Shown piece after piece: positions 1 through 16,400 of a stretch of DNA of 46,928 nucleotides. How positions within the stretch are numbered: position 1 is the first letter of the stretch; each line of letters opens with the position of its first letter. The stretch covers positions 1 through 46,928 of the forward strand of contig JAMPCN010000010.1 in NCBI GenBank assembly GCA_023666125.1. The letters are read 5' to 3'. This DNA comes from Bacillus sp. (in: firmicutes) (lineage in GTDB: Bacteria > Bacillota > Clostridia > Lachnospirales > Lachnospiraceae). The notes under the pieces were generated by a model. That model was not told the DNA's origin. It saw only the letters and a program-made list of their open reading frames with translations, and did no database searches. The translations under genes and the position numbers were made by a program.

Positions 1-52
1 CTATGACCCTCTGCTTGTAAGGCAGATGCTCTCCCAGCTGAGCTAAGATCCC
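1..52 (-). tRNA. tRNA-Val (UAC), 3' part cut by window edge
   Basis: On the minus strand the sequence starts GGGATCTTAGCTCAGCTGGG, a typical acceptor and D-arm. An anticodon stem follows with loop CTTACAA, so the anticodon is TAC (valine). The T-arm and 3' acceptor strand lie outside the window. A good promoter lies just upstream. Confidence 0.93.
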
Positions 53-174: not shown

Positions 175-1326
175 CTAAATAGTCTTCACCTCTCGCCCTT
201 TCTGTGTCAGATTAGAATAAAATGCCCTAAACTGCACACTATCCTTTTGGCACATCCATTCCCGATAGCGCGTCTCTACATAACATGCCGGTTTTTTCAT
301 GATATTTCTTTGCTTTTTCTGCCAATCAGCATTCATCTTCTGATAAAGCGCCTCTTCTTCCAATACAGCTTCATCGTATAAATCCGGCTCTTCAAACTCC
401 TCTGCCAGGTTTTGGTAATAGCATTCCAACATCTCTGACCAACGTTCTTGCAGCTCGAAGAAATAGTCAAACGTCTTTATCTTATCTTCTATAAAATCTT
501 CTCCCGGGTCAGCCGGTGCAAAAAAGAGGCTGTCATGCCCACTTTCATACTTGAAGTTAATTTTTACTTTATCCCTGACCGTGTCCACATAGGGAAGAAA
601 TATGTGCCGGATATCCGCATTACGTCTATCATCCGTATGTTTTTTCTCTTTTTTATAAACCTGATTGCATGATTTACAGGAAAAATAAAGATTATCGGGG
701 TGCAGTGCCAGACAGGGAATGAAAGCCTTAGGGAAATAATGTTCCACGTCATGTTCTTTCTTTGCATTTGCAGCCTGCAATAAACAAACCGGGCAGATAT
801 GTTGAAGCTGTTTATTTTCTACATCAAAATATCTTTCCACAAACTCCTTTCTTCCATAGGGTTTCTCGCTAAGTCCTTCTAAGGCAAAGCCGTTCTCCGA
901 ACGGAATCTCTCCTTATGAAAATAAAGAAAAAAGTTTTTGATTATCTGCTGCTCCATTTCGTCCAGTTCTATCGTCTGAAAGGAAAAGCTTACGGAAGTA
1001 TCTTTTGCAAATTCCATATCATGCCTAACCGCATCATAAATCCTTTGCCTTTGCAGTTGTGGCATAGCCAAAAGGTCATCCACAGTCTTCTTCATTGCCG
1101 AACTGTTCCGGGCGTTATTACCATAAAATCCGTATATCCATGCACCATCCTTTTGGGATATGCCGAAAACAGATTCGTTCCTTTTTAAAAAATTTTTCCA
1201 TTCTTCCTCATCAAAGGAAGCGCTGCTTCCACTCAAAGAAGCCGCAAATGCAAAAACGGCGCACAGGCATTTACTGATATAAGCAAGGTCTTTTTCGTGA
1301 TTTTTACTATGAATATCCCAGAAAAT
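175..1326 (-). CDS. HNH endonuclease, PtuB-like, with probable ATT start
   Basis: Predicted DNA (or nucleic-acid) endonuclease and effector of the four-gene cassette. Counting from a TTG codon at 1236, two zinc-binding pairs are C148/C151 and C187/C190. Between them lie D163/H166 (motif DVEHYFPKAF) and N182, followed by N191 after the last Cys. This is the HNH/beta-beta-alpha-metal layout of TIGR02646/PtuB-type nucleases. Start choice: the frame is open upstream of TTG-1236, and no ribosome site precedes that codon. A GAGGTGAT Shine-Dalgarno overlaps the ATPase stop codon (1331-1333), and the codon 7 nt from its GAGG core is ATT (1324-1326). That start gives 383 aa; starting at TTG gives 353 aa. 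The gene is last in the operon M-S-ATPase-HNH. The domain call is firm; the start and the partnership with the M/S genes are inferred. Confidence 0.8.
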   Translation of the reverse strand: MFWDIHSKNHEKDLAYISKCLCAVFAFAASLSGSSASFDEEEWKNFLKRNESVFGISQKDGAWIYGFYGNNARNSSAMKKTVDDLLAMPQLQRQRIYDAVRHDMEFAKDTSVSFSFQTIELDEMEQQIIKNFFLYFHKERFRSENGFALEGLSEKPYGRKEFVERYFDVENKQLQHICPVCLLQAANAKKEHDVEHYFPKAFIPCLALHPDNLYFSCKSCNQVYKKEKKHTDDRRNADIRHIFLPYVDTVRDKVKINFKYESGHDSLFFAPADPGEDFIEDKIKTFDYFFELQERWSEMLECYYQNLAEEFEEPDLYDEAVLEEEALYQKMNADWQKKQRNIMKKPACYVETRYREWMCQKDSVQFRAFYSNLTQKGREVKTI

Positions 1327-1330
1327 AATA

Positions 1331-2932
1331 TCACCTCATTTCAACGTCTGCCAGAGAATAATATGCCTCATACATCTGAAACCGTTGATATCCCGGACCT
1401 AATTTACTAATATTTTCCCTGATTTTTTCCAAATCAATTTCTTTTGTCTCTTCCATCCTGTTCACTTCTTCTATCATTTCATTCACAGAATCGGCAGCAT
1501 ATTTGCCTATAGCATTTGTCTTAAAAATATGTTTGGAAATCTCATCCCTTTGGGCGGCAAAGGTTGAAATATCAATATCCTCTACCGTAACTTGACCATC
1601 ATCAGCATTGTCCAAGAGCGTAATCTGCCCATACATGGCATCCGTCAACAGTAAAGTGGAATGCGTCGCAATTAAAAACGCATTTTTCGTGTTTTCGTTG
1701 AGTTCGTATATAATATGAATAAAATCCCTGTTCCAATCGTCATTAAAATGCACGTCCGGCTCATCATATAAAAAGAGCATATTGTCTCCGCAATGGCTTT
1801 GCGCCAGCAAAATCAGACCGGTTCTTGCCAGCCACATCAATTCGCCATCACTTAAATCCTTTGTTCTGAACAACCCTTTTTGCTCACTGTTTCTGTAAAA
1901 AAAGTGAACGTCTTTTATAATGCCCTCTCTGTATGCAGTCAAAAGCACGGATATCAAATGCAGGGCATTTCCGTCAAAAAATTTCTGCAATCCCGGGTGG
2001 TAAAAAGACCTTTCATCCGTTTTGTCATATTGACTATACAAAAATACTGCCACGGATTCCGCCGGCTGGTTTTCATCCGCCATTTCCTCAGTGACAGATG
2101 TTTTATCAATCACCCAGGAATCGGTTCCGGCATCTTTCTTACGGCTCTCTTCCAACAGCCGCCGCAGTAAATCAATCTGTGGTATATCGGCAGTGCGTTC
2201 CATCAGTTCTTCATTTACCTGAAAAGAAAATGCGGCCGGGAGCAGGCCTGTATGCAGACGCTTCACCAGCATCTCCCGCAGTTTCCAATACTTCGCCAAA
2301 TTCTGCCCGTCATCATCGCTTTGCATATCCATGGGAATCACCGCAAAAAGTACAGGCAAAATGATTTTGGACGATATGGCATCCAGATACAGCATCCGTG
2401 GGTTAATAATAAGCTGCTCATAATAACGGCGCATCTCTTCTATGGCTTCAAGATTCCTGTCCGCTTCTTTCTGCATGGCAATGTCATAAAAATCACTAGC
2501 AAGAGCATCTCTCGGAGACGAAATCAATATCGCTTCCATGGAATTATTTGCACCGGAACAATAGGAAATAATCCGGCTGGGAAGATACTCATTCGGAACC
2601 GCAGAATATTTCGATACTTTCCCCTTTTGTTCCACCCGGACATAAAGTTTACGCCGCCTGCCTGATTCATCATGGTAATCCGGCGCCTGCGGCTTTATAA
2701 AAACCCTTACGCCGTCCGGCATACTATACCAGATTTCAAAATAAAAACCGGGAAGTTCTTCCTGCATAATCCGGGTAAAAATCAAGCCTACGGCTTCCAG
2801 TATCCGCGATTTTCCCGAACCGTTGCGCCCTACAAAGAAATTAACCGCCACCGGCGCGGATTGTTCATCAAAATGAATCTTAAGCTCTTTTATGCCTTTA
2901 TAACCATCCAGATACAAATATTCCAGTTTCAT
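1331..2932 (-). CDS. AAA/ABC-type ATPase, PtuA/OLD-like (AAA_15/AAA_21 family)
   Basis: A 533-aa ATPase of the SMC/OLD-like class. Walker A is G35RNGSGKS42, the ABC-like signature is LSDGE (360-364), Walker B is LFLYDEPD (387-394) and the switch histidine is in ATHST (about 423-427). There is no TOPRIM domain and no long coiled coil, so it is neither a full OLD nuclease nor Rad50. Pairing such an ATPase with an HNH nuclease in the next gene is the hallmark of Septu (PtuA-PtuB) and of the effectors of some retrons. It starts with ATG 20 nt after the S gene stop, and its stop overlaps the ribosome site of the HNH gene. The likely role is nucleotide-gated control of the HNH nuclease. ATPase identity is firm; the subfamily is probable. 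Confidence 0.85.
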   Translation of the reverse strand: MKLEYLYLDGYKGIKELKIHFDEQSAPVAVNFFVGRNGSGKSRILEAVGLIFTRIMQEELPGFYFEIWYSMPDGVRVFIKPQAPDYHDESGRRRKLYVRVEQKGKVSKYSAVPNEYLPSRIISYCSGANNSMEAILISSPRDALASDFYDIAMQKEADRNLEAIEEMRRYYEQLIINPRMLYLDAISSKIILPVLFAVIPMDMQSDDDGQNLAKYWKLREMLVKRLHTGLLPAAFSFQVNEELMERTADIPQIDLLRRLLEESRKKDAGTDSWVIDKTSVTEEMADENQPAESVAVFLYSQYDKTDERSFYHPGLQKFFDGNALHLISVLLTAYREGIIKDVHFFYRNSEQKGLFRTKDLSDGELMWLARTGLILLAQSHCGDNMLFLYDEPDVHFNDDWNRDFIHIIYELNENTKNAFLIATHSTLLLTDAMYGQITLLDNADDGQVTVEDIDISTFAAQRDEISKHIFKTNAIGKYAADSVNEMIEEVNRMEETKEIDLEKIRENISKLGPGYQRFQMYEAYYSLADVEMR

Positions 2933-2951
2933 CCTCGTCCACGTCTTTCTC

Positions 2952-4469
2952 TTATTCTTTCATCTTGGCTGCAACAGCCTTGTATTTCTGAATTGTCACG
3001 GCATTTCCGCGCAAATCCGTAATTTCATTTTCTCCAAGAAATAATTTTTCAGGAATCGTCTTTTCCAAAAATCCTAAGCCCTCCAATATCTTCACTGCCG
3101 CAATGGCATCCTGTATGGAATATCCCGCGCATACCGCCTTATTTTCTGTTTTTAAGTTCTTTAATACCTCATGGATGGGCATGGAAATTTTTTCCTCTTC
3201 CAGATACTTACACAACATTTCTTTTTGAAAATCGGACAGCAATTTGATGATTTCTCTTTGTCCGCCCTGAAATACCGCGTCCGGATTAATCACTTTTTTG
3301 GCTGCCGCATCACTTTCTATTTCTACTGTTTTTGCGCCATAATGCCATAGGATAAAATCTTCGTCGGGTTCTTCAAACCCTCTGTCTGTCCGGTACTTTT
3401 TCGATAACCGGGCCGTCAGGGCGGCCGTCAGCAATGCCTGATAAAACTTCTGTTCCTTTTTTTCAATTCTTTTTACCTCATCCTGAATGGTAAATAGTTT
3501 GTGCAGGATACCCGTAAGTTCATCCTGTATTCCCCAAAACGCCGCCGGAATCTCCATATCGGCTGCTCTATAGGCCTTTAACGGCTCACTGTGAAACCCC
3601 AGATATTTGGAAGCAAAACGCAGCCATCCCAGCAAAACCTCCGGCTGCAGCCTGGCGGGATTTACTCTGACGCGTAACAGGCTTCCGGTAAACGCCGCAG
3701 CCGCCTCAATATCTGTTTTTTTCGTTATCAACAGATAATTTTCATCCTTTTTTGACGGATGTTGCCTGATTACAATATCTCCCGGCTGCAAAAGCATCCG
3801 TTCCGTGAAAGCGTCTTTTCTTCTGTGGGCTGCTGGTATGAACGTAATAGATTCCGCCAGGCACTCTCGCAGTGTATAGCTTCTGTTTCCGCCGTGGAAA
3901 GCTTCCCGCTTTCTTTCCATAATGCTATCCAATATCCGCTCTGTCCCCTGATAGGCATGACACTGCTTTTTAACCATGTCCTCCGCTCTTTTCATGATAT
4001 GGACGATATATCTTTGTTCTTCCATACGCGGAAACAAAATATATGTATTTTCCAGTCTCGTTTTCGTCAGATTGGGGATGGTGACCGTATTGGCCATCCT
4101 CTCCAGCCACGGTCTGTAAAACTGAAAATAATAATAAGCATATTCCGCCAAAACCATATCTTCTCTAAAAACCATGGCCTGAACCGCCTGATTGACCATC
4201 AATGGCACTCTTGCGATGGAAACCTTTCCTATCGTGCCGGAAACAGACAAAAGCACAGCGCCTTTGGGAACCTCCCGTCCAATCCGGTCGGCGCCTTCTT
4301 CCGTTAAGCAATTTTCCGTTTCCCGTAAATCCCGGTCGTTTAAATCGCTGACCTTGACCCATGGCACGCCCGCCTTTTCCGCATAATATTCTTTGCGCGT
4401 ACGGTTAGGAGTAGCGCCCTTTATCCAGTCAACCACCACGTCTTTTAATAATTTTCTCTGCCAGTTCAT
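2952..4469 (-). CDS. Type I restriction-modification specificity protein (HsdS-like) with extra C-terminal domain
   Basis: A 505-aa DNA-sequence recognition subunit. The first target-recognition domain (about 1-150) carries the usual signature: GATPNR (18-23), VPWVKVSDL (35-43), VLLSVSGTIGKVSIA (72-86) and MVNQAVQAM (91-99). The first spacer helix is about 150-190. A second, more divergent recognition domain is about 195-335, and a second helix runs 315-360, ending QALLTAALTARLSKKYR. Typical HsdS proteins stop near here. This one continues for about 145 residues (361-505) with an acidic linker and an alpha-rich region that may be winged-helix-like. Its ATG overlaps the methylase stop (ATGA, 4466-4469), so the two are translationally coupled. 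The added domain could contact the ATPase or HNH protein (inference). Confidence 0.88.
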   Translation of the reverse strand: MNWQRKLLKDVVVDWIKGATPNRTRKEYYAEKAGVPWVKVSDLNDRDLRETENCLTEEGADRIGREVPKGAVLLSVSGTIGKVSIARVPLMVNQAVQAMVFREDMVLAEYAYYYFQFYRPWLERMANTVTIPNLTKTRLENTYILFPRMEEQRYIVHIMKRAEDMVKKQCHAYQGTERILDSIMERKREAFHGGNRSYTLRECLAESITFIPAAHRRKDAFTERMLLQPGDIVIRQHPSKKDENYLLITKKTDIEAAAAFTGSLLRVRVNPARLQPEVLLGWLRFASKYLGFHSEPLKAYRAADMEIPAAFWGIQDELTGILHKLFTIQDEVKRIEKKEQKFYQALLTAALTARLSKKYRTDRGFEEPDEDFILWHYGAKTVEIESDAAAKKVINPDAVFQGGQREIIKLLSDFQKEMLCKYLEEEKISMPIHEVLKNLKTENKAVCAGYSIQDAIAAVKILEGLGFLEKTIPEKLFLGENEITDLRGNAVTIQKYKAVAAKMKE

Positions 4470-5878
4470 TGTATATTTTCGACCTCCTCAAGGAGACTTT
4501 CCATATCTCTTAGAACTTCATCCTGCTCTTTTAGCATCTGCATAAGTAACTCTGCCGGGTCTTCAAATTCCAGTTCCCGCATGGAAGATGGCCTATAGTG
4601 TTCGGAAAGAAGATTATATCCTGCATCCCGAATGGTATCAATATCAACGACCCATTCGGCATCCGGCTCTCTGTTTTTCCATCCGTCGGTATCGTCATCT
4701 TCTTTCTGCGCCATCTGATAAAATGTTACTTTCTTTGTCTGCCCATGCGCCATCCCGCTGCCATTTTCCGCCCGGTTACTAACGATTAGCGCGCTTGCTC
4801 TAACCGCTGTCTGCGGATAAAACGTTTTTTCCGGCAGCGCTATCACTTCTTCCAGACAGTAAGCGTCCAGCATCCATTCACGCACCGCCATATAATCCCG
4901 TTTCATGGAAAATAAAAAGCTGTCCGGCGTTATGATAACAGCATGTCCTCCCGGTGCAAGCGACTGTAAAATACGCACGATAAATAAGCTGTATTGACTT
5001 TTTATCTCTCCCGATTCATTTGAAAAAAGCGGCAGATATATATTCTGCGGTATGACGTTATTATTAAAGCCAGGATTTGCCAGTACAATGTCATACTGGC
5101 TTTCCGCTTGTTGCTCCGCAAATTCTCCCTCATACGTTTTTATCTCCATATCCGAAAGAATTGCCAATATCTGCGCAGATATCCGAAATATCTGGTTATT
5201 TTCAAATCCATAAAAAGAAGCGTTTGGATAATACTTTTTCGCCATTATCAGCATATTGCCCGTACCATACTGCGGGTCCAAAACCGCTGCCGGCCGTTTA
5301 CTATGCTCGGATTCCGTTTTTGCATATAACCGTTCCATAAGCCGCTCCACAATCCTATCCGGCACAAAAAATCTCCCCGAAGCCGACTTACCGCTGCTAA
5401 TACACAGACTATGGATATTGTAGACTGCATGATAAACCGCGGACATATCATCAGACTGTTTCCGCAGCAAAATCAAATCTTTAATGACAAGCAGTATCTG
5501 GCGCAGTACGGAATGCCTTTTAATGGAAAAGGAAAAATCGGCAAAAACGGAAAATCTGTTATTTACCCCTACAACATTTTCTTGAAAGGTTGAATGCCAA
5601 AAGCCAATCAGAAAGTCGATTTCCTTTGCCGGTAATTCTGATGACTCATCTTCTTTCAAACGGACTTTTCTCTTATACGCATGAATCCTGCCATCTTCCA
5701 TCATGTCGTCCGTAAGATATCCCTCATTAGACAGTCTGCATAACAGCAAATACCCAAATTCATTAAAAAGCGTCCGTAAATCCTCAGAGTACTCCATGCG
5801 GTAAAAATCCATGGCAATTTTAAATTTGTTTACTATCTGCTGCGTAAGCTCCACCCGTAAAGCGCTTTCCATATTCAT
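4466..5878 (-). CDS. Type I N6-adenine DNA methyltransferase (HsdM-like) with atypical SAM and catalytic motifs
   Basis: A 470-aa protein with an N-terminal helical region (about 1-160), the HsdM-like entry segment GRFFVPDRIVERL (168-180) and a Rossmann methylase domain. Motif I is D201PQYGTG207 (families usually have DPxCGTG/DPxxGSG). Motif IV is N268PGF271 instead of the near-universal NPPF/NPPY. The second Pro is replaced by Gly in the catalytic loop, so activity may be reduced or lost. Downstream VIITPDSFLF and the LPEKTFYPQT segment are typical of HsdM. The gene starts 28 nt after argS with an AAAGG ribosome site, is coupled to the S gene by ATGA, and has no promoter of its own in the short gap. 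Assignment to the HsdM family is firm; catalytic status is open. Confidence 0.88.
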   Translation of the reverse strand: MNMESALRVELTQQIVNKFKIAMDFYRMEYSEDLRTLFNEFGYLLLCRLSNEGYLTDDMMEDGRIHAYKRKVRLKEDESSELPAKEIDFLIGFWHSTFQENVVGVNNRFSVFADFSFSIKRHSVLRQILLVIKDLILLRKQSDDMSAVYHAVYNIHSLCISSGKSASGRFFVPDRIVERLMERLYAKTESEHSKRPAAVLDPQYGTGNMLIMAKKYYPNASFYGFENNQIFRISAQILAILSDMEIKTYEGEFAEQQAESQYDIVLANPGFNNNVIPQNIYLPLFSNESGEIKSQYSLFIVRILQSLAPGGHAVIITPDSFLFSMKRDYMAVREWMLDAYCLEEVIALPEKTFYPQTAVRASALIVSNRAENGSGMAHGQTKKVTFYQMAQKEDDDTDGWKNREPDAEWVVDIDTIRDAGYNLLSEHYRPSSMRELEFEDPAELLMQMLKEQDEVLRDMESLLEEVENIQ

Positions 5879-5906: not shown

Positions 5907-7742
5907 CTACATCCTATCCGGCGCCGAAAATCCCAACAAATCAATACATGTTTCCAGCACATCTCTTGTCAACATCAGTAATGATATCCAACCGTCCTGT
6001 TTTGCTTTATCTTCTTCCGTCAAAATTTTAGTTTCATGGTAGAAATGGTTGAAAGCATTCGCCAAATCATAAATATAAGCGCAGACTTTATGCGGTGCAG
6101 CTTCCTCATAAGCGCTTTCTATCATCGCATTAAACCCTGTAATTTCAAGCATTAACGCCTTTTCCGACTCACTTTCCGCCGCCCGCAGCGCACTCGGTTC
6201 CAAATTGCTGTCATCATTTAATATGTCGACATTGCTGCCTGCCGCAGAGTCCGTTGCCATAGAGGCATCCGCACTGCCGGTCTGTTGCGCATATTTATGC
6301 AGAATCGACTTAATCCTGACAATGGTATACAAAATATACGGTCCGGTATCTCCCTCAAAAGAAGTAAACCTGTCAATATCAAAAATGTAGTCTTTCAACG
6401 CCTGATTGGACAAATCTCCGTATTTGACCGCAGAAAGAGCGACTATGCCTGAAATCTCTTTCGCTTCCGTTTCACTCATGGATTTATTATCTATAATCTT
6501 ACGGTACATCTCTTCATTAATATCACGAAGCAGATGTTCCAGACGCATCACGCCGCCATCCCTTGTTTTAAAAGGCTTGCCGTCTTTCCCGTTCATGGTT
6601 CCGATTCCAATATGAAGCAGTTCTGTCTCCGGTTTTACCAAGCCGGTTTTCCTTGCGCACCGGAATACCTGTTCAAAGTACAATGCCTGCCGTTTATCTG
6701 TCAGATAAATCAGTTTGTCCGGGTGATACTTATTCATACGGTCCATAATCGTTGCCAAATCCGTTGTGTTGTACAAAGAAGCGCCGTCTGATTTTAAAAT
6801 CATGCAGGGCGGTACTTCTTTCGTATCCGTCTCCTCTTTGACATCTACTACCAGCGCACCATCGCTTTCATGTGCATAACCGCCTTTTTTCATCTCTTCA
6901 ACCATACCCGGAATCAATTCCTGAACATCAGACTCCCCTTTCCAAAGGTCAAACTCCACATTCAGGTTTCCATAGTTTTTCTTCAAGTCCTCTATTGACA
7001 CATTCATAATATGCTGCCAAAGCGCTCTGAATCCAGGTACGCCGTTCTGGAGCTTATATGTCGCTTCCATTGCCTGCGCTTTATACTGCGCATCCTCTTT
7101 GGATTTTGCGCTTGCCGTCGGATAGATTTCCTCTAATTCCGATATGGTAAAAGGCGCTTCTTTCGGGTACTCTCCCTTATAACTTTCATCAAAATAGACA
7201 AGTTCCGGTTGTCGTTTTTTTAATTCCGTGATAACAAGCCCCATCTGTAAGCCCCAATCTCCCAGATGAACGTCTCCGATAACATTATGCCCTGCATAGC
7301 GGCAAATGCGCTTGATGCTCTCACCGATAATCGCCGGACGCAGATGTCCTACATGAAGCGGCTTTGCAACATTGGCGCCGCCGTAATCCACAATAATCAT
7401 CTTTGGGTTCTCAGGCATCTGTAAGCCGAACTTTTCACTTTGGCACATTTCCTGTAAATATTCTTTTATAAACTTCTCCGTTACTTTCAAATTTAAAAAT
7501 CCGGGCATAACCGCTTCCACCTGCGAAAACACCTTGCTATCCTGTAATTTTTCCGCTACTTCATTCGCTATCGCAATCGGGGCTTTATGATACTGCTTCG
7601 CGCCCGCCATGGCGCCGTTACACTGGTATTCGCACAAATCCGGTCTGTTGGAAAGCGTCACTTTTCCCAAATCCGCCTGATAGCCCGCCGCCTCAAATGC
7701 CTTTTTCATTTCTTCTGAAATCAAATCCAAAAATTTTTCCAT
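5907..7742 (-). CDS. argS: Arginyl-tRNA synthetase
   Basis: Cytoplasmic enzyme charging tRNA-Arg (611 aa from this start). The class I HIGH motif appears as HVGH in the segment KPLHVGHLRPAIIGES. The region GTMNGKDGKPFKTRDGG takes the place of a canonical KMSKS, as in many bacterial ArgRS. The C-terminal DALR anticodon-binding domain ends LLGFSAPDRM. A Ser/Ala/Asp-rich stretch (around SADASMATDSAAGSN) interrupts the start of the anticodon-binding region and looks like a flexible insertion. An in-frame ATG four codons upstream (7754) lies almost on top of the AAAGG ribosome site. The MEKFLDLI start is preferred by homology. It lies downstream of queH and immediately upstream of the methylase gene. 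Confidence 0.95.
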   Translation of the reverse strand: MEKFLDLISEEMKKAFEAAGYQADLGKVTLSNRPDLCEYQCNGAMAGAKQYHKAPIAIANEVAEKLQDSKVFSQVEAVMPGFLNLKVTEKFIKEYLQEMCQSEKFGLQMPENPKMIIVDYGGANVAKPLHVGHLRPAIIGESIKRICRYAGHNVIGDVHLGDWGLQMGLVITELKKRQPELVYFDESYKGEYPKEAPFTISELEEIYPTASAKSKEDAQYKAQAMEATYKLQNGVPGFRALWQHIMNVSIEDLKKNYGNLNVEFDLWKGESDVQELIPGMVEEMKKGGYAHESDGALVVDVKEETDTKEVPPCMILKSDGASLYNTTDLATIMDRMNKYHPDKLIYLTDKRQALYFEQVFRCARKTGLVKPETELLHIGIGTMNGKDGKPFKTRDGGVMRLEHLLRDINEEMYRKIIDNKSMSETEAKEISGIVALSAVKYGDLSNQALKDYIFDIDRFTSFEGDTGPYILYTIVRIKSILHKYAQQTGSADASMATDSAAGSNVDILNDDSNLEPSALRAAESESEKALMLEITGFNAMIESAYEEAAPHKVCAYIYDLANAFNHFYHETKILTEEDKAKQDGWISLLMLTRDVLETCIDLLGFSAPDRM

Positions 7743-7811
7743 TTTAATAACCATACCTTTCTTGCAATCTTCCGCTGCCCATGGATGACAGAGCTTTTCT
7801 TTCTGCTGTAT

Positions 7812-8606: not shown

Positions 8607-11600
8607 CTATGACCTTCTCGCAATCGTCGCAATATCCACAAGATGCAGTTCCCCCTGTGAAGCCGCATTCTCTAAGCTTGCCACAAGAGCCGCCGCCGTA
8701 TCCATCGCCGTGATACAGTAGATACCGGTCTCAATAGCAGTTCTTCTGATGAGAAAACCATCTCTGCTCTTATCGCGCCCCTGCGTAGGCGTATCGATGA
8801 CAAGGTCGATTTTGTGTCCTAAAATTAAATCCATGACAGTCGGGGATTCCTGCTGTATCTTATTGACTTTTCTTGCCTTGACGCCGGCGTCCTGCAAAGC
8901 TGCCGCCGTGCTTCTCGTCGCATAAATCTTATAGCCCAGCTTCTCAAAGCGGCGCGCTACCTCGATAGCCTCCCCCTTATCGGCGTCTTTTACCGTAATA
9001 ATCATCTGTTTATACTTCGGCAGGTTGATGCCCGCGCCCAGAAACGCTTTATATAACGCTTCATTGAAAGTCTTGGCAATGCCAAGGCATTCACCCGTCG
9101 ATTTCATCTCCGGCCCTAAGCTGATTTCCGCGCCGCGGATTTTCTCAAAGGAAAATACCGGCATCTTAATCGCAAAGTAGTCCGCCGCCGGCTGTAATCC
9201 CGGCTCATAGCCAAGGTCGCGGATTTTTTTACCGATAATCACTTCCGTCGCCAAATCCACAATCGGAATACCCGTTACCTTGCTGATATACGGCACGGTA
9301 CGGGAAGAACGGGGATTGACCTCGATAACATAGACCTCGTCTCCTACCGCGATAAACTGAATATTGATTAAACCGATGACATGTAATGCCTTTGCCAGCC
9401 GTCTGGAATATTCCGCTATCGTTTCTTTTACTTTCTCACTGACTGTCGGCGCCGGATAGACGGAAATACTGTCTCCTGAATGGACGCCCGTCCTCTCGAT
9501 ATGCTCCATAATGCCCGGAATCAGAATATCCGTACCGTCGCATACCGCATCGACCTCTAACTCTTTTCCCTGCAGATATTTATCGACCAGAATCGGGTGG
9601 TCCTGCTCATAACGGTTGATAACCGCCATAAATTCTTCAATCTCCTTATCGGAAATGGCTATCTGCATTCCCTGTCCGCCCAACACATAAGAGGGACGCA
9701 CTAAAACGGGATAACCGAGCCTGTTGGCAACCTCTTTTGCCTCCTCGGCGGTATAGACCGTGCCGCCCGCCGCCCTGGGAATCTCCGTTTCTTCCAGAAT
9801 CTTGTCAAATAACTCCCTGTCCTCGGCGGCATCCACATCCTCCGCCTTAGTTCCCAGAATCGGAACGCCCATTTTCATCAGGCTTTCCGTCAGTTTAATT
9901 GCCGTCTGCCCGCCAAACTGTACAACCGCTCCGTCAGGTTTTTCAACATTGACAATATTCTCCACATCCTCCGGCGTCAACGGTTCAAAATACAGTTTAT
10001 CCGCAATATCAAAATCAGTGCTGACCGTCTCCGGGTTATTATTAATAATAATGGTCTCGTAACCCTCTCTTGCAAAAGCCCATGTCGCATGAACGGAGCA
10101 GTAATCAAATTCGATTCCCTGTCCGATACGGATAGGACCGGAGCCAAGCACCAGTACTTTCTTCTTTGGATGTGTTTCCTCCACTTCCGTTTCCGAACCG
10201 AATACGGAATAGTAGTAAGGGGTACTTGCCGCAAATTCCGCCGCACAGGTATCCACCATCTTAAATGCCGCCACGATGCCGTTTTCATAGCGCATTTTCT
10301 TGATTTCATCCTCTGTTTTTCCGCTCAATCCAGCAATGACATTATCCGGAAATTCAATCCGCTTTGCCTCTTTTAATAATTCCACGGTCAGCGGCTCTTT
10401 TTCCAGTCTTTCTTCCATCTCCGTTAAAATAGCAATCTTATCAATAAACCAGACATCCACCATGGTGATATCATGAATCGTATCGTAGTCGATGCCTTTC
10501 CGAATTGCTTCCGCAATAATATAGATTCTCTGGTCGTCCACAATTTTCATCCGCTCGAGCAATTCTTCTTTCGATAACTCTGAAAAATCATAGCTGCGCA
10601 GACAGTCCACATGCTGTTCCAAGGAACGGATGGCTTTCATCAGCGCGCCCTCAAAGTTATTGCCAATACTCATAACTTCTCCGGTCGCTTTCATCTGCGT
10701 TGTCAATGTGCGTTTTGCCGTAATAAATTTATCGAACGGCAGTCTTGGTATTTTTACGACACAATAGTCAAGCGTCGGTTCAAAACTGGCATAAGTCTTG
10801 CCCGTAATGGCGTTTTTAATCTCATCGAGCGTATAACCGAGCGCAATCTTTGCCGCCACCTTGGCAATCGGATATCCCGTCGCCTTGGAAGCAAGCGCCG
10901 AAGAACGGCTCACACGTGGATTTACTTCAATCACGCAGTATTCAAAGCTGGTCGGGTGCAGAGCAAACTGCACGTTGCATCCGCCCGTAATCGCCAGTTC
11001 GTTAATGATATTGAGTGCGGAACTTCTAAGCATCTGATATTCTTTATCCCCCAACGTCTGCGAGGGAGCAACGACGATACTGTCGCCCGTGTGGACGCCT
11101 ACCGGGTCGATATTTTCCATATTACAAACGGTGATGCAGTTGCCCGCGCCGTCGCGCATCACTTCGTATTCGATTTCTTTCCAGCCCGCTATGCAGCGTT
11201 CCACCAAAACCTGCCCCACACGGGAAAGGCGCAGGCCATTGGCAAGAATCTCCTCCAGTTCCAACTGGTTATGGGCAATGCCGCCGCCGGAACCGCCCAG
11301 CGTATATGCCGGACGAAGCACAACCGGATAACCGATTTGATTCGCAAAATCCACACCGTCCTGAATGTTTTCCACAACAAGAGAGGGCGCGCACGGCTCC
11401 CCAATTTTTTCCATCGTCTCTTTAAATTCCAGCCTGTCTTCCGCTTTCTTAATCGTCTTTGCCGTCGTACCTAGAAGCGTAACGCCGTGTTCTTTTAAAA
11501 ATCCCGACTCATCTAACTCCATGCCGAGATTTAAGCCCGCCTGGCCGCCCATATTCGGTAAAAGGCTGTCCGGTTTTTCTTTTATAATAATCTGTTCCAG

Positions 11601-11819
11601 CACCTCGACCGTCAAAGGTTCAATATAAACTTTATCCGCAATATCGCCGTCCGTCATAATCGTTGCAGGATTGGAATTGACTAAAATAACCTCCATTCCT
11701 TCTTCTTTTAAGGAACGGCACGCCTGCGTACCCGCATAATCAAATTCCGCCGCCTGCCCAATCACAATCGGCCCCGAGCCTATTACCAACACTCTCTTCA
11801 CATTCGGATTCTTTGGCAT
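8607..11819 (-). CDS. carB: Carbamoyl-phosphate synthase, large subunit
   Basis: Makes carbamoyl phosphate for pyrimidine and arginine synthesis together with CarA. At 1,070 aa it has the usual full length. Two homologous ATP-grasp halves each begin with a VLVxGSGPIxIGQ segment (residues about 10 and 555), each has the GGQ-containing phosphate-binding loop, and each ends with the NPRxSRSSAL / NPRSSRTVPY metal and active-site signature. A C-terminal MGS-like allosteric domain (from about 935) completes it. GGAGG lies upstream of the ATG. The gene follows carA across a 157-nt gap that contains a structured repeat. Confidence 0.97.
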   Translation of the reverse strand: MPKNPNVKRVLVIGSGPIVIGQAAEFDYAGTQACRSLKEEGMEVILVNSNPATIMTDGDIADKVYIEPLTVEVLEQIIIKEKPDSLLPNMGGQAGLNLGMELDESGFLKEHGVTLLGTTAKTIKKAEDRLEFKETMEKIGEPCAPSLVVENIQDGVDFANQIGYPVVLRPAYTLGGSGGGIAHNQLELEEILANGLRLSRVGQVLVERCIAGWKEIEYEVMRDGAGNCITVCNMENIDPVGVHTGDSIVVAPSQTLGDKEYQMLRSSALNIINELAITGGCNVQFALHPTSFEYCVIEVNPRVSRSSALASKATGYPIAKVAAKIALGYTLDEIKNAITGKTYASFEPTLDYCVVKIPRLPFDKFITAKRTLTTQMKATGEVMSIGNNFEGALMKAIRSLEQHVDCLRSYDFSELSKEELLERMKIVDDQRIYIIAEAIRKGIDYDTIHDITMVDVWFIDKIAILTEMEERLEKEPLTVELLKEAKRIEFPDNVIAGLSGKTEDEIKKMRYENGIVAAFKMVDTCAAEFAASTPYYYSVFGSETEVEETHPKKKVLVLGSGPIRIGQGIEFDYCSVHATWAFAREGYETIIINNNPETVSTDFDIADKLYFEPLTPEDVENIVNVEKPDGAVVQFGGQTAIKLTESLMKMGVPILGTKAEDVDAAEDRELFDKILEETEIPRAAGGTVYTAEEAKEVANRLGYPVLVRPSYVLGGQGMQIAISDKEIEEFMAVINRYEQDHPILVDKYLQGKELEVDAVCDGTDILIPGIMEHIERTGVHSGDSISVYPAPTVSEKVKETIAEYSRRLAKALHVIGLINIQFIAVGDEVYVIEVNPRSSRTVPYISKVTGIPIVDLATEVIIGKKIRDLGYEPGLQPAADYFAIKMPVFSFEKIRGAEISLGPEMKSTGECLGIAKTFNEALYKAFLGAGINLPKYKQMIITVKDADKGEAIEVARRFEKLGYKIYATRSTAAALQDAGVKARKVNKIQQESPTVMDLILGHKIDLVIDTPTQGRDKSRDGFLIRRTAIETGIYCITAMDTAAALVASLENAASQGELHLVDIATIARRS

Positions 11820-11887
11820 CTTCTTTCCTCCATACTAACTCTTAAGTTTATCTCTGCCTTATCTCTATTTCTATCCCTTCATAACCC

Positions 11888-11973
11888 GACAGAATGCTCT
11901 TTACGCATTCTGTCAGGCGAAGCATAGAAACTCTCAATAAGCGTCCTTTGCTTATTTAGAGTTTTTCTTCGTC
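11888..11973 (-). repeat. Structured intergenic element, copy A (between carA and carB)
   Basis: Two adjoining structures. One is a perfect 10-bp hairpin GACAGAATGC/GCATTCTGTC (11888-11914). The other is a nested stem: outer GGCGAAG/CTTCGTC (11916-11973), then AAACTCT/AGAGTTT, then AATAAGC/GCTTATT closed by GTCCTTT. Read in the direction of transcription it begins three bases after the carA stop. The same architecture and the GGACGC core recur in copy B (26679-26789). Confidence 0.75.
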
Positions 11974-11976
11974 TTG

Positions 11977-13188
11977 TTACTTTTTCGCCTTCTTCATCAT
12001 GGTAATAAACCTGTCAAACAAATCCCCCGAATCCTGCGGCCCCGGACACGCCTCCGGATGGAACTGCACGGTGAAAATATTCTTTCCCGTATAAGAAAGC
12101 CCCTCGTTTGTTCCGTCGTTGACATTGATAAATGCCGGCGTCGCCACGGCGGGATTTAATTTATCCATATCCACGACATACCCATGATTTTGTGAGGAAA
12201 TATAGACCCTGCCGCTTTGTAAATCCTTTACGGGATGGTTGCCCCCGCGGTGTCCGTATTTCATCTTAAACGTATCCGCACCCGTCGCAAGCGCCATCAA
12301 CTGATGCCCCAGACAGATTGCAAAAATCGGTATATCGGTATCATAAAGTTTTTTAATCTCCGCAATAATTTCACTGCATTCTTTCGGGTCTCCAGGTCCG
12401 TTGCTAAGCATAATGCCGTCCGGCTTATCCGCTATAATTTCCGTCGCCGCAGTCCTTGCGGGATAAACCGTCACATCACAGCCCCTTGCCGCAAGCGACT
12501 TGGCGATATTGTCTTTTGCGCCATAATCAAGCAGCGCCACGCGCAGCCCCTGTCCTTCTATCTTACGTACAAGACTTGGCTTTTTCTCTCTTTTTCCCGC
12601 GGCAAACCTTTCTGCGTCAAAATGCGAACTTCCCGAAACAGGCCCATTATCCGCAATATCTTTTGCTCCTTTTAACTCATATTTATTTTGGCAGGACACG
12701 GCCTCCACCACTTTGCCGGTCGTATAAGCTTTTAAATCAGGCAGAATTTGGGAAAACGCCTCTTCTTTTCCTGCCTGCCCGAAACGCTCATCTGTCGTAA
12801 TCATGCCGTTCATCGTGCCTTTTTCACGCAGAATTTTCGTAAGCGTCCTTGTATCGATTCCGGCGATGCCGGGGATATCATATTTTTCCAGAAACTCCTG
12901 AATCGTCATATCACATCTGAAATTACTTGGGATTCTGCTTAATTCTCTGACGATAAAACCATCAAGACAGGGCTTTGGCGATTCCATATCCTCATTACAG
13001 ATACCGTAATTTCCAATCAAAGGATAGGTCATACAGACGGCTTGTCCGGCATAAGACGGGTCTGTCAGCACTTCCAGATAACCAGCCATAGAGGTGTTAA
13101 AAACAATTTCACTGATGATTTCTTTTTGGGCGCCGATGTGGGTTCCCTCAAACACCGTGCCGTCTTCCAATATTAAAAATGCCTTCAT
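11977..13188 (-). CDS. carA: Carbamoyl-phosphate synthase, small (glutaminase) subunit
   Basis: Class I glutamine amidotransferase subunit (403 aa) that feeds ammonia to CarB. The N-terminal CPSase small-chain domain is about 1-130. The GATase domain has the nucleophile Cys292 in FAICLGHQLMAL and the His of QFHPEACPG near 378. A short Ser/Lys-rich linker (about 180-210) separates the two. It is transcribed ahead of carB. The start is ATG at 13188, which overlaps the stop of a tiny upstream reading frame (13185-13199). Confidence 0.96.
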   Translation of the reverse strand: MKAFLILEDGTVFEGTHIGAQKEIISEIVFNTSMAGYLEVLTDPSYAGQAVCMTYPLIGNYGICNEDMESPKPCLDGFIVRELSRIPSNFRCDMTIQEFLEKYDIPGIAGIDTRTLTKILREKGTMNGMITTDERFGQAGKEEAFSQILPDLKAYTTGKVVEAVSCQNKYELKGAKDIADNGPVSGSSHFDAERFAAGKREKKPSLVRKIEGQGLRVALLDYGAKDNIAKSLAARGCDVTVYPARTAATEIIADKPDGIMLSNGPGDPKECSEIIAEIKKLYDTDIPIFAICLGHQLMALATGADTFKMKYGHRGGNHPVKDLQSGRVYISSQNHGYVVDMDKLNPAVATPAFINVNDGTNEGLSYTGKNIFTVQFHPEACPGPQDSGDLFDRFITMMKKAKK

Positions 13189-13199
13189 GTAATAACCAT
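13185..13199 (-). promoter_or_regulatory. Minimal upstream ORF overlapping the carA start (MVIT-stop)
   Basis: On the minus strand AAAGAAAGGGC is followed by ATG GTT ATT ACA TGA. The TGA overlaps the carA ATG (ATGA). AAAGG is 13 nt from the carA ATG but only 2 nt from the upstream ATG. Nearly the same AAAGG-N-ATGG arrangement, with the same 13-nt spacing, precedes argS and the GH42 gene. The leader geometry therefore looks conserved rather than accidental. Confidence 0.45.
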
Positions 13200-13208
13200 G
13201 CCCTTTCT

Positions 13209-13481
13209 TTATTCTTTTGTCTGCTTCCTTTGCGTAATCGTTTCATTATAGCATAAGAAGACATAGGATTTCAATGGGCGAAACAGGGAAAATCGGAATA
13301 TCCGGGCGAAAGGCTTTAGACGCTTTGACGGCATAATGAATGATAGATATTCCCGGCACGGCACGCGCCGCAAAAAGGCCGCCTGCAATAGTTCATTATG
13401 ATAATGCAACATATCCGGCAGCCATATCGTGTGCGTCTTTTTCATCGCTCTTGTAAATTCTGCTCCCTGTGAAAATTTCAT
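13209..13481 (-). pseudogene. Remnant of a 2-hydroxyacyl-CoA dehydratase activase-like gene
   Basis: A 90-codon reading frame begins with ATGA overlapping the purL stop. Its first third (F T R A M K K T H T I W L P D M, then LLQAAF) resembles the segment FTxEMKKTxTIL.PxM...LLEAAF of the large BadF/BcrA-type CoA-dehydratase activase proteins. After about residue 37 similarity stops in all three frames and the rest is Arg/Phe/Ser-rich without recognisable sequence. The parent proteins exceed 1,000 aa, so this would be a short decayed fragment stranded between purL and carA. The resemblance is recalled, not searched. A novel small protein coupled to purL is the alternative. Confidence 0.45.
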
Positions 13482-16400
13482 CTAAAGTACGCAACTCCCG
13501 ACTCAAATATCTTCAAATCCTGTTCTCCGTAAATATTAACCGCAACGCCGTCTCCTCTTCTCTCCGAATGCGCCATCTTGCCAAGGCAGCGTCCGTCAGG
13601 AGAGGTAATTCCCTCAATCGCCGCATAGGAACCATTAATATTCCACTCTTCGTCCATGGATACGTTACCGTCAGCATCCGCATATTGGGTAGCGACCTGA
13701 CCGTTTGCAAACAGTTTATCCAGCCACTTTTCGGAAGCGACAAAACGCCCCTCGCCATGGGATGCCGGATTTACATAAGTATTTCCCACAACCGCTTGCT
13801 GAAGCCATGGCGACTTATTGGAAACCACTTTAATATATGCCATCTTGGATATATGGCGGTTAATCGTATTAAATGTCAAAGTCGGCGAATCCTCCTGCTG
13901 TCCTGTAATCTCACCATAAGGCACAAGACCGAGTTTGATAAGCGCCTGGAACCCGTTACAGATACCGAGCGCAAGGCCGTCTCTTTCCTGCAAAAGCTTC
14001 ATGACCGCCTCTTTCATCTTCGCATTCTGGAACGCCGTTGCAAAGAACTTGGCGGAACCATCCGGCTCATCACCTGCAGAAAAGCCGCCCGGGAACATGA
14101 TGATCTGCGCTCTGCCGATGGCCTTTTCAAATACCTCTACGCTCTCTATGATATCCTGAGGTGTCATGTTTTTAAATACTTCCGTTATCACATCCGCCCC
14201 GGCATTCGTAAATGCCTTTGCGCTGTCATATTCACAGTTCGTACCCGGGAAGACCGGAATAAATACGGTAGGCCTTGCCACTTTATGCTTACAGATATAA
14301 ATATTGTCCGCCTGATATTCTTTGGACTCTACCGGACTCTTATCTTTCCCCGCCGTATACGGGAAGACTTTATCGAGGGTGGAAGTCCATGCGCCGAGTG
14401 CTTCTTCCATTGTCACTTTTACATCGCCATAAACAAATACGGGTTCTTTCGCCACCGTCGCAACAATCTGATAATCCGACTTTTCCCATTCTTTCCTGCC
14501 CGCAAGTTCCTCTGCCGCCTCCTTAGGCATTTCGGCCACGATATCGCCCAATCCATTGGCAAAAAACACAGCTTCCGGCAGTGTCTTTTCTATGATTAAT
14601 CCAAACTTATTACCAAATGCCATCTGGCTGACCGCCGCCGCCACGCCTTTAGCATCCACCGCATAGGCGGAAACGATTTTCTTTTCCGACATTAATGTCA
14701 TAATTTTATCGTATAATGCCATAACCTTTGCAAAAACAGGCAAATCATACTCGTCTTTGGCAATCTTAAACCATACCAGCTTATTACCGGGTTTTTTCAA
14801 TTCCGGACTGATAATATCCTGCTTCTTACCGATATCTACCGCGAAAGAAACAAGTGTCGGCGGCACGTCAATGTCGTTAAAGGTTCCCGACATGGAATCT
14901 TTTCCGCCGATAGACGGCAGTCCGTATTCCATCTGCGCCCGATATGCGCCAAGAAGCGCGGCAAAAGGCTGGCTCCAACGCTGTGGCTGCTCACTCATGC
15001 GCCTGAAATATTCCTGGAAAGTAAAGCGGATTTTCTTATAATCTCCGCCGTTTGCCACAATCTTTGCCATGGACTCCGTTACCGCATAAATCGCGCCATG
15101 ATACGGACTCCAACTTGATAAATACGGGTCAAAGCCATAACTCATCATTGTTACGGTATCTGTCTTCCCTTCCAAGACAGGAAGCTTCGCCACCATCGCT
15201 TGCGTCTGCGTCAACTGATATTTTCCGCCATATGGCATATAGACGCTGCCCGCGCCGATAGAAGCGTCGAACATTTCCACCAGGCCCTTTTGCGAACAGA
15301 CATTTAAATCATGCAGCAGGGCAAGCCACGCCGCTTTCACGTCATTTTTTTGCAAAGCCTCTTCCACGGCAGGAATCGCCGTCTTTTTCATATAATTGTC
15401 ATCCGGCTTTGGCATATTCACACGCACGGAAGTTTCCTGATGCGCACCGTTCGTATCCAAAAACGCTCTGGAAATATTGACTATCTCTTTTCCGCGCCAT
15501 GTAAGCACCAGCCGCGGCTCTTTCGTTACATGCGCAACCGCGACGGCCTCCAGATTTTCCTGTGCCGCATATTTCAAAAATTCATCCGTATTTTCAGGGG
15601 AAACCACAACCGCCATTCTTTCCTGGGATTCTGAAATAGCCAGTTCCGTACCGTCTAAGCCTGCATACTTTTTCGGTACTTTATCCAAATCCACAACCAA
15701 ACCGTCAGCCAGCTCTCCAATCGCTACGGAGACGCCGCCTGCGCCAAAATCATTGCATTTTTTGATTAATCTGCTGACTTCCTGTCTGCGGAACAGCCTC
15801 TGAATCTTACGTTCCGTCGGCGCATTTCCTTTCTGCACCTCCGCGCCGCATGTCTCGATAGAACTTTCCGTATGCACCTTGGAAGAACCCGTTGCGCCGC
15901 CGCAGCCATCGCGTCCGGTTCTGCCTCCTAACAGGATGATGATATCTCCAGGGTCGGAAGCCGCGCGAATTACATTCTTTCTCGGAGCCGCGCCCATAAC
16001 CGCACCAATTTCCATTCTCTTAGCCACATAATCAGGGTGATAAATTTCCTTTACCAGTCCGGTCGCAAGACCAATCTGGTTACCGTAGGAAGAATAACCG
16101 CCCGCCGCGCCGCGCACCAGCTTTTTCTGGGAAAGCTTTCCTTTTAAGGTTGCCGCCACCGGCACTGTCGGGTCGGCCGCGCCCGTCACACGCATGGCCT
16201 GATATACATAACCGCGCCCGGAAAGCGGGTCACGGATAGCGCCGCCAAGACAGGTCGCCGCACCACCAAACGGTTCTATTTCGGTCGGATGGTTATGCGT
16301 TTCATTCTTAAAAAAGACAAGCCACTCCTCGGTAACCGGCCCGTTTCCGTAATCCATCTCCACCGGCACAATCACGGAACAGGCGTTAATTTCATCGGAC

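What the first reader, a model, noticed from the sequence alone, without database searches (positions are those of the whole stretch)
175..5878. Four-gene cassette: HsdM-like + HsdS-like + PtuA-like ATPase + PtuB-like HNH nuclease, no HsdR
Seen: four minus-strand genes with 4-nt or roughly 20-nt junctions, encoding a type I-like methylase, a specificity protein, an AAA_15/21-type ATPase and an HNH nuclease, bounded by argS and tRNA-Val. Known: ATPase plus HNH is Septu, and the same pair serves as effector of some retrons; M+S without R cannot restrict by the type I route. Inference: the M/S pair acts as a DNA-methylation sensor or self-marking module that licenses or triggers the ATPase-HNH effector. 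This would be a hybrid not matching classical type I RM, BREX, DISARM or stand-alone Septu.
Basis: partly seen in the sequence, partly recalled or inferred. Interest (0 to 1): 0.88.

Follow-up and report, generated by a model that had tools for sequence, protein, structure and literature searches.

The report
R-less methylase pair with PtuAB-like effector
A bacterium carries a stripped-down restriction-modification operon that has lost its DNA-cutting subunit and perhaps its ability to mark DNA, yet keeps the DNA-recognition part beside a two-gene nuclease weapon, which suggests that an old DNA-recognition machine now mainly controls a different antiviral effector.

Summary
The four genes are real: M 4466-5878, S 2952-4469, ATPase 1331-2932, HNH nuclease 175-1326, minus strand, between argS and a tRNA-Val cut by the contig end. 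The combination is not new in kind. In 54 well-flanked loci of near relatives, M, S, ATPase and HNH are present in all, and 45 also carry hsdR (five R proteins tested are EcoEI-type). NCBI has a family for the ATPase, 'restriction system-associated AAA ATPase'. So this is a type I restriction locus with an embedded PtuAB-like pair, laid out like PrrC in EcoprrI.

Unusual is the minority R-less form (9 of 54; 14 loci judged R-less in all). The catalytic motif IV of HsdM is NPPF in 58 of 58 R-positive rows but altered in 8 of 14 R-less loci, this one included (NPGF; relatives NPVF, NPLF). Two of the eight have broken M genes, and the association is not significant once relatedness is counted. 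Here all four genes are intact, with dN/dS 0.14-0.30 against a close relative. Best reading: an M-S complex that cannot restrict, and perhaps cannot methylate, is kept as sensor or latch of an ATPase-HNH toxin. That control step is inferred.

The parts
4466..5878 (-). HsdM-like N6 adenine methyltransferase, 470 aa
   Evidence: PF02384 2.9e-24; nearest solved chain 7eew_A 1e-12; no HsdM_N match at E up to 1
5255..5278 (-). HsdM motif I (SAM-binding), DPQYGTGN
   Evidence: aligned to DPAxGTGG of relatives
5066..5077 (-). HsdM motif IV, NPGF in place of NPPF
   Evidence: NPPF in 58 of 58 R-positive rows
2952..4469 (-). HsdS-like specificity protein, 505 aa: one recognised recognition domain (residues 2-164), a second region much less conserved, and a C-terminal tail (376-505)
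   Evidence: PF01420 2e-20; 1yf2_A 2e-34; region identities to L016 and L017 56/60%, 26/34%, 41/45%
1331..2932 (-). PtuA-like ATPase of the TIGR04435 kind, 533 aa
   Evidence: nearest solved chains are the retron Ec78 ATPase (9.4e-16) and other PtuA proteins
2807..2830 (-). ATPase Walker A, GRNGSGKS
   Evidence: all but R36 invariant in A2
1757..1855 (-). ATPase signature LSDGE and Walker B LFLYDEP
   Evidence: S-D-G-E and D-E-P invariant in A2
175..1326 (-). PtuB-like HNH nuclease, 383 aa if begun at the ATT at 1326-1324 (353 aa from TTG 1236)
   Evidence: only solved match of the profile 9n69_F, 0.0019
664..795 (-). HNH core: C181, C184, H199, N215, C220, C223, N224 (numbers of alignment A3)
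   Evidence: C181, C184, H199, N215, C223, N224 invariant and C220 nearly invariant in 12 rows
1324..1337 (-). Ribosome-binding site GAGGTGAT followed by ATT ATT; probable AUU start of the HNH gene
   Evidence: 23-nt string TGAGGTGATATTATTTTCTGGGA shared by window, L015 and L017; L016 has ATG at the place of the second ATT
5907..7754 (-). argS, left neighbour
   Evidence: argS relatives in 18 of 31 genomes, own included
1..51 (-). tRNA-Val(TAC), cut by the contig end, right neighbour
   Evidence: same letters as the complete gene in L110, L111, L113; not called by ARAGORN

Best explanation
The cassette descends from a type I restriction locus (EcoEI-like) with an embedded PtuAB-like ATPase-HNH pair, of the M-S-effector(-R) layout known for PrrC. 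In this lineage hsdR is gone and the catalytic motif IV of HsdM has changed. M and S are kept as a DNA-binding complex that holds the ATPase-HNH effector latent and/or tells it when to act. When a phage disturbs that complex, or offers DNA that it binds, the ATPase drives the HNH nuclease against tRNA or DNA and infection aborts. Shown: gene order, insertion site, absence of R in the operon, altered motif IV, intact effector motifs, dN/dS below 1 in all four genes. Inferred: latency, trigger, nuclease target, weakened or lost methylation.
For: M and S present in 54 of 54 well-flanked near relatives, R in 45. R-less state needs 6 changes on the ATPase tree, so M-S repeatedly stays with the pair without R. 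Motif IV NPPF in 58 of 58 R-positive rows, altered in 8 of 14 R-less ones; Fisher 3e-7, or 8e-6 without the two broken M genes, ignoring relatedness. All frames open and dN/dS 0.22, 0.30, 0.14, 0.18 for M, S, ATPase, HNH against L015. Three same-order loci have M-S-ATPase-HNH-R, the order of hsdM-hsdS-prrC-hsdR; PrrC is latent through association with EcoprrI (PMC3014915, passages). PtuAB of retron-Eco7 is a toxin held by other retron parts and degrades tRNA-Tyr (PMC11555353, passages).
Against: No interaction, expression or activity was tested. Correcting for relatedness, motif IV change with R loss is not significant: 6 pairs, none contrary, p 0.125-0.5; without the two broken M genes 5 pairs, p 0.5-1. 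Six of 14 R-less loci keep NPPF, as does L133, a further R-less locus not in that table. NPGF keeps Asn, Pro and Phe and may still methylate. More distant pairs live without M/S. PrrC activation data involve HsdR, which is missing here.
Confidence: 0.45

Rival explanations
1. M-S still methylates and marks self, and ATPase-HNH has replaced HsdR as a nuclease directed to unmodified sites.
For: Six of 14 R-less loci, and L133, keep NPPF, so M may be active there; motif I is kept in the window; S is intact.
Against: Motif IV altered here and in 7 other R-less loci. In 45 of 54 loci R is present beside the pair, so the pair is not simply a replacement for R.
Confidence: 0.2
2. ATPase-HNH is an autonomous Septu-like system; M-S is an orphan methyltransferase or a passenger without a role in defence.
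For: Distant relatives of the pair stand without M/S: 8 of 14 plasmid records opened and 3 Bacillota loci.
Against: Near relatives have M and S in 54 of 54 well-flanked loci, and M-S stays when R is lost. The search was seeded on one ATPase motif, which may favour this subfamily.
Confidence: 0.17
3. R acts in trans: M-S works with an HsdR encoded elsewhere in the genome.
For: Five HSDR_N matches elsewhere in the genome, one of them with an EcoEI-type C-terminus on C125.
Against: N6_Mtase matches lie on the same contigs for C50, C69 and C77. The C125 R follows its own S fragment at a contig end, so it looks like part of another locus. The altered motif IV is unexplained.
Confidence: 0.08
4. A decaying remnant of a type I locus.
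For: R absent, motif IV changed, region after the first recognition domain poorly conserved (34% and 26% to L017 and L016). Two other R-less loci have M in pieces (L045, L056).
Against: Four open frames in window, L015, L016 and L017; dN/dS 0.14-0.30; ATPase and HNH motifs kept.
Confidence: 0.08

Closest known systems
Type I loci with a TIGR04435 'restriction system-associated AAA family ATPase' (e.g. Kovacikia L008, Sphingobium L009, Herpetosiphon L010)
   Same: M, S, ATPase and HNH-type gene in one operon
   Different: They carry hsdR and an NPPF methylase; the window has neither and scores 113 of 300 bits on TIGR04435
EcoprrI with PrrC
   Same: ABC-type ATPase effector embedded behind hsdS; same order in L012-L014 (PMC3014915, passages)
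   Different: PrrC is one protein with its own tRNase domain and works with HsdR; here two proteins with HNH, and no R
Septu (PtuAB)
   Same: ATPase and HNH of the PtuA and PtuB kinds
   Different: Septu has two genes; here M and S belong to the operon, and the HNH protein matches PtuB only weakly
Retron I-A (Ec78/Eco7) PtuAB
   Same: Nearest solved ATPase chains
   Different: No reverse transcriptase among the four genes; matches below NCBI cut-offs
Other effectors embedded in type I loci: TgvAB, DarTG2
   Same: Two-gene defence modules inside an hsd operon (PMC11411939, PMC12255303; passages)
   Different: Unrelated effectors, and R is present
MADS
   Same: MTase, S-like and ATPase parts; weak matches to MAD2, MAD5, MAD3
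   Different: Far below cut-offs; four genes only. What MADS contains beyond the family names is recalled

Membership tests
Type I restriction-modification system | hsdM and hsdS homologues in one operon | tested here: met
   PF02384, PF01420
Type I restriction-modification system | hsdR in the locus | tested here: not met
   argS and tRNA-Val bound the cassette; other HsdR genes lie on other contigs
Type I restriction-modification system | NPP(Y/F/W) catalytic motif in M | tested here: not met
   NPGF; motif definition from PMC3874165 section 31
Type I restriction-modification system | DNA methylation and restriction | not testable with these tools
   needs methylome and plating assays
TIGR04435 restriction-associated ATPase loci | ATPase over the curated cut-off of 300 bits | tested here: not met
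   113 bits, E 1.3e-32; yet aligned with members over its length
TIGR04435 restriction-associated ATPase loci | S gene before and HNH-type gene behind the ATPase | tested here: met
Septu | PtuA-like ATPase | tested here: met
   PADLOC PtuA 5.5e-39
Septu | PtuB HNH nuclease | tested here: inconclusive
   PtuB 7e-8 in PADLOC, 26 of 150 bits in NCBIfam; core residues kept
Septu | two-gene, self-sufficient system | tested here: inconclusive
   M and S in the same operon; need for them untested
Retron I-A | reverse transcriptase beside PtuAB | tested here: not met
   none among the four genes or their two neighbours
PrrC/EcoprrI type effector control | effector gene behind hsdS, before hsdR | tested here: inconclusive
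   behind hsdS here; before hsdR only in relatives L012-L014
PrrC/EcoprrI type effector control | effector held latent by Hsd proteins | not testable with these tools
   needs co-purification and toxicity assays
MADS | MAD2, MAD3, MAD5 at curated cut-offs | tested here: not met
   36.9 of 720, 19.9 of 420, 22.7 of 400 bits

The most novel reading that the evidence does not exclude
A type I M-S complex that has lost both restriction (no R) and modification (dead motif IV) survives under selection purely as the DNA-sensing latch of a PtuAB-type effector. With intact genes this would have happened at least twice, in the window clade (window, L015, L017) and in a Pseudomonas clade (L042, L051, L077): a restriction-modification machine turned into a non-enzymatic receptor.
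Probability: 0.33. Interest if true: 0.75.

Novelty: new variant of a known kind. Interest (0 to 1): 0.55.

Why it matters
If M-S is kept without restriction or modification, the question of what effectors embedded in type I loci listen to becomes testable in a minimal four-gene system without HsdR. It would also suggest that PtuAB-type nucleases accept different controllers: retron parts in retrons, none known in Septu, an M-S complex here.

Tried and rejected
Considered and rejected: (1) hsdR hidden past the contig end: 8 of 13 same-genus loci without the cassette have tRNA-Val close behind argS, and the cassette here ends at that tRNA. (2) MADS and retron membership: scores far below cut-offs or defining genes absent. 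(3) Phage origin: no tblastn match of the ATPase in 50,697 phage records; none confirmed in viral contigs, by a single-protein query that finds close relatives only. (4) The TTG start of the HNH gene: it would drop 30 residues, in a stretch shared with L016 and L017.

Led nowhere: promoter scan 11 sites against 13.9 in shuffles; terminator scan 8 against 5.4, sd 2.0. The S tail may be shared with proteobacterial S subunits of this family, but the profile match is weak (probability 55% and 87% in two settings) and nothing rests on it. The preprint of Payne et al. 2024 on embedded defences was seen only in reference lists and citing passages.

Rows dropped and limits: L073 is the same record as L010 and was left out of the tree and of Fisher's test. 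L018, L037, L047 and L091 (M-S-A-N, but cut by contig ends) and L081 were not counted as R-less. L133 was found later and is not in the 14. Of 17 plasmid hits 14 were opened (not H11, H16, H17); L136 has only about 2.2 kb upstream of the ATPase. Of 409 genome relatives the best 80 were held. Of the 11 N6_Mtase matches in the genome, 8 loci were held. R was recognised by phmmer from five seeds, and five R proteins were checked by Pfam.

Full report
Observation. The window is the start of contig C11 of a 138-contig genome, 88% complete. The right-hand tRNA-Val is cut by that end and not called by ARAGORN. argS matches were found in 18 of 31 genomes (own included); 14 loci other than the window's own were read. 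One (L109) has the M gene behind argS; by coordinates and identity it is probably the genome of L015. Of the other 13, eight have tRNA-Val(TAC) 75-332 bp behind the argS match, and five show no tRNA in the 197-1212 bases held. The letters of the cut tRNA and its promoter-like hexamers recur there. I infer a four-gene insertion between argS and tRNA-Val. The string TTAGAAA(G/A)AAA stands on both sides of it (5897-5887, 156-146) and once in the empty site of L110; in A-rich DNA this may be chance.

Relatives. A plasmid search gave 17 records and a genome scan 409 relatives, of which the best 80 are held. The census took the window and L007-L094: 89 loci with the ATPase, L010 and L073 being one record. 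Of 54 with at least 8.5 kb upstream and 2.5 kb downstream of the ATPase, all have M, S and HNH; 45 have R, 9 do not. Five more (window, L015, L007, L060, L076) were judged R-less by reading their flanks, which makes 14. Of five R proteins tested, all have ResIII and EcoEI_R_C and four HSDR_N. The order is mostly R-M-S-A-N; in L012-L014 it is M-S-A-N-R; Pantoea eucalypti L133 has S-A-x-M without R.

More distant relatives of the pair have no M or S: 8 of 14 plasmid hits opened (L131, L132, L134-L139) and L127, L128, L130. This is against a strict dependence of the pair on M-S. The near family is rare: in family draws only the window's own genome matched (1 of 250 and 1 of 397). In the order draw, by TIGR04435, 3 further genomes of 295 matched. 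In class and phylum draws 2 further of 391 and 2 further of 398 matched; one of these four is R-M-S-A-N (L129) and the others lack M/S.

Loss of R. On an ATPase tree of 87 rows the R-less label needs six changes, and starred branches force six. It is a quick tree with SH-aLRT support only, the root is arbitrary, and the program warned of long branches. Window, L015, L016 and L017 form one R-less clade (100). The Pseudomonas loci L042, L051 and L077 form another, next to R-positive loci.

Motif IV. Type I M subunits carry NPP(Y/F/W), the catalytic site of methyl transfer (PMC3874165, section 31 read whole). All 58 R-positive rows (57 records) read NPPF. Of 14 R-less loci six read NPPF (L007, L016, L053, L060, L074, L076). 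Eight are altered: NPGF (window), NPVF (L015), NPLF (L017), DLPH, DLPF and DLPL (L042, L051, L077), NPAF (L045, M in pieces) and NPR (L056, M in pieces). L133, R-less but outside this table, reads NPPF. Fisher's test, ignoring relatedness, gives 3e-7, or 8e-6 without L045 and L056. With relatedness (independent pairs) no pair goes the other way, but p is 0.125-0.5, and 0.5-1 without those two. The association is therefore suggestive only.

In the same genome, seven other methyltransferase genes (of ten other N6_Mtase matches) were inspected; all have NPP[FY]. HsdM_N was found in 8 of 9 M proteins (L009 under its cut-off), the exception being L016. It was not found in L017, L042 or L077 (E up to 0.001) or the window (E up to 1). 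So M is altered more widely in these clades, also where NPPF is kept (L016). Three different residues at one catalytic position in three relatives look like relaxed constraint. Yet M as a whole has dN/dS 0.22 to L015, against 0.07 for argS and 0.02 for carB. This is one pairwise comparison without a test. The cassette genes have lower dS (0.11-0.15) than argS and carB (0.34, 0.23), which may mean exchange of the cassette between the two lineages.

Effector. ATPase motifs are intact. The HNH protein keeps C-x2-C, His, Asn-Leu and C-x2-C-Asn. The nearest solved chain for the ATPase is the retron Ec78 ATPase, with Septu PtuA also matched; for the HNH profile the only one is a TIGR02646 protein (0.0019). 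PtuAB of retron-Eco7 degrades tRNA-Tyr, while Septu PtuAB is described there as degrading DNA (PMC11555353, passages). The target here is unknown.

Mechanism. In EcoprrI the order is hsdM-hsdS-prrC-hsdR; PrrC is latent through association with the Hsd proteins, and Stp together with DNA carrying unmodified sites activates it (PMC3014915, passages; PMC12707154, passages). The present family has that architecture with a PtuAB-like pair in the place of PrrC. That R is lost repeatedly while M and S stay suggests that M-S serves the pair. That motif IV may then change suggests that recognition rather than methylation is kept. Both are inference; no interaction was tested. S has a tail (376-505) kept within the clade (41% and 45% to L016 and L017), a candidate docking site.

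HsdR elsewhere. The genome has five HSDR_N matches on other contigs, one EcoEI-like on C125 behind an S fragment at a contig end. Help in trans is not excluded.

Comparison with print. Embedding of defence genes in type I loci is known: TgvAB (PMC11411939) and DarTG2 (PMC12255303), passages. NCBI names the ATPase family. In ten searches of the held library, seen as listings, I recognised no paper on an HsdM-HsdS-ATPase-HNH operon without hsdR. Preprints and most subscription journals are not held, so this says little about novelty.

Verdict. It is an R-less variant of type I loci with an embedded PtuAB-like pair, most interesting for the altered HsdM.

Noticed in passing
window 1337-1324 (minus); L015 about 11595-11612; L017 about 11575-11592: The HNH gene seems to start with AUU: a 23-nt string with a strong ribosome-binding site and ATT ATT is shared by window, L015 and L017 although the L017 protein is only 45% identical; L016 has ATG there. 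AUU starts are rare (recalled: infC) and would keep expression of a nuclease low.
   Followed up: partly
window 5897-5887 and 156-146: TTAGAAA(G/A)AAA flanks the cassette on both sides and occurs once in the empty site of L110; possible trace of the insertion, or chance.
   Followed up: partly
window cassette against L015: dS of the four cassette genes (0.11-0.15) is lower than of argS (0.34) and carB (0.23), as if the cassette had been exchanged between the two lineages.
   Followed up: no
L053 5275-6860, L060 2360-4095: Two Bacteroidota R-less loci have a gene pair upstream that looks like AbiEi/AbiEii by eye (no search run).
   Followed up: no
L141 (G000:C125), 9925-14591 of the contig: Another type I locus of the same genome has a gene that looks Fic-like by eye between the S fragment and an EcoEI-type HsdR.
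   Followed up: partly
L009 3597-5314: Sphingobium plasmid: a hypothetical gene and a GIY-YIG nuclease stand between M and S of an R-M-S-A-N locus.
   Followed up: no
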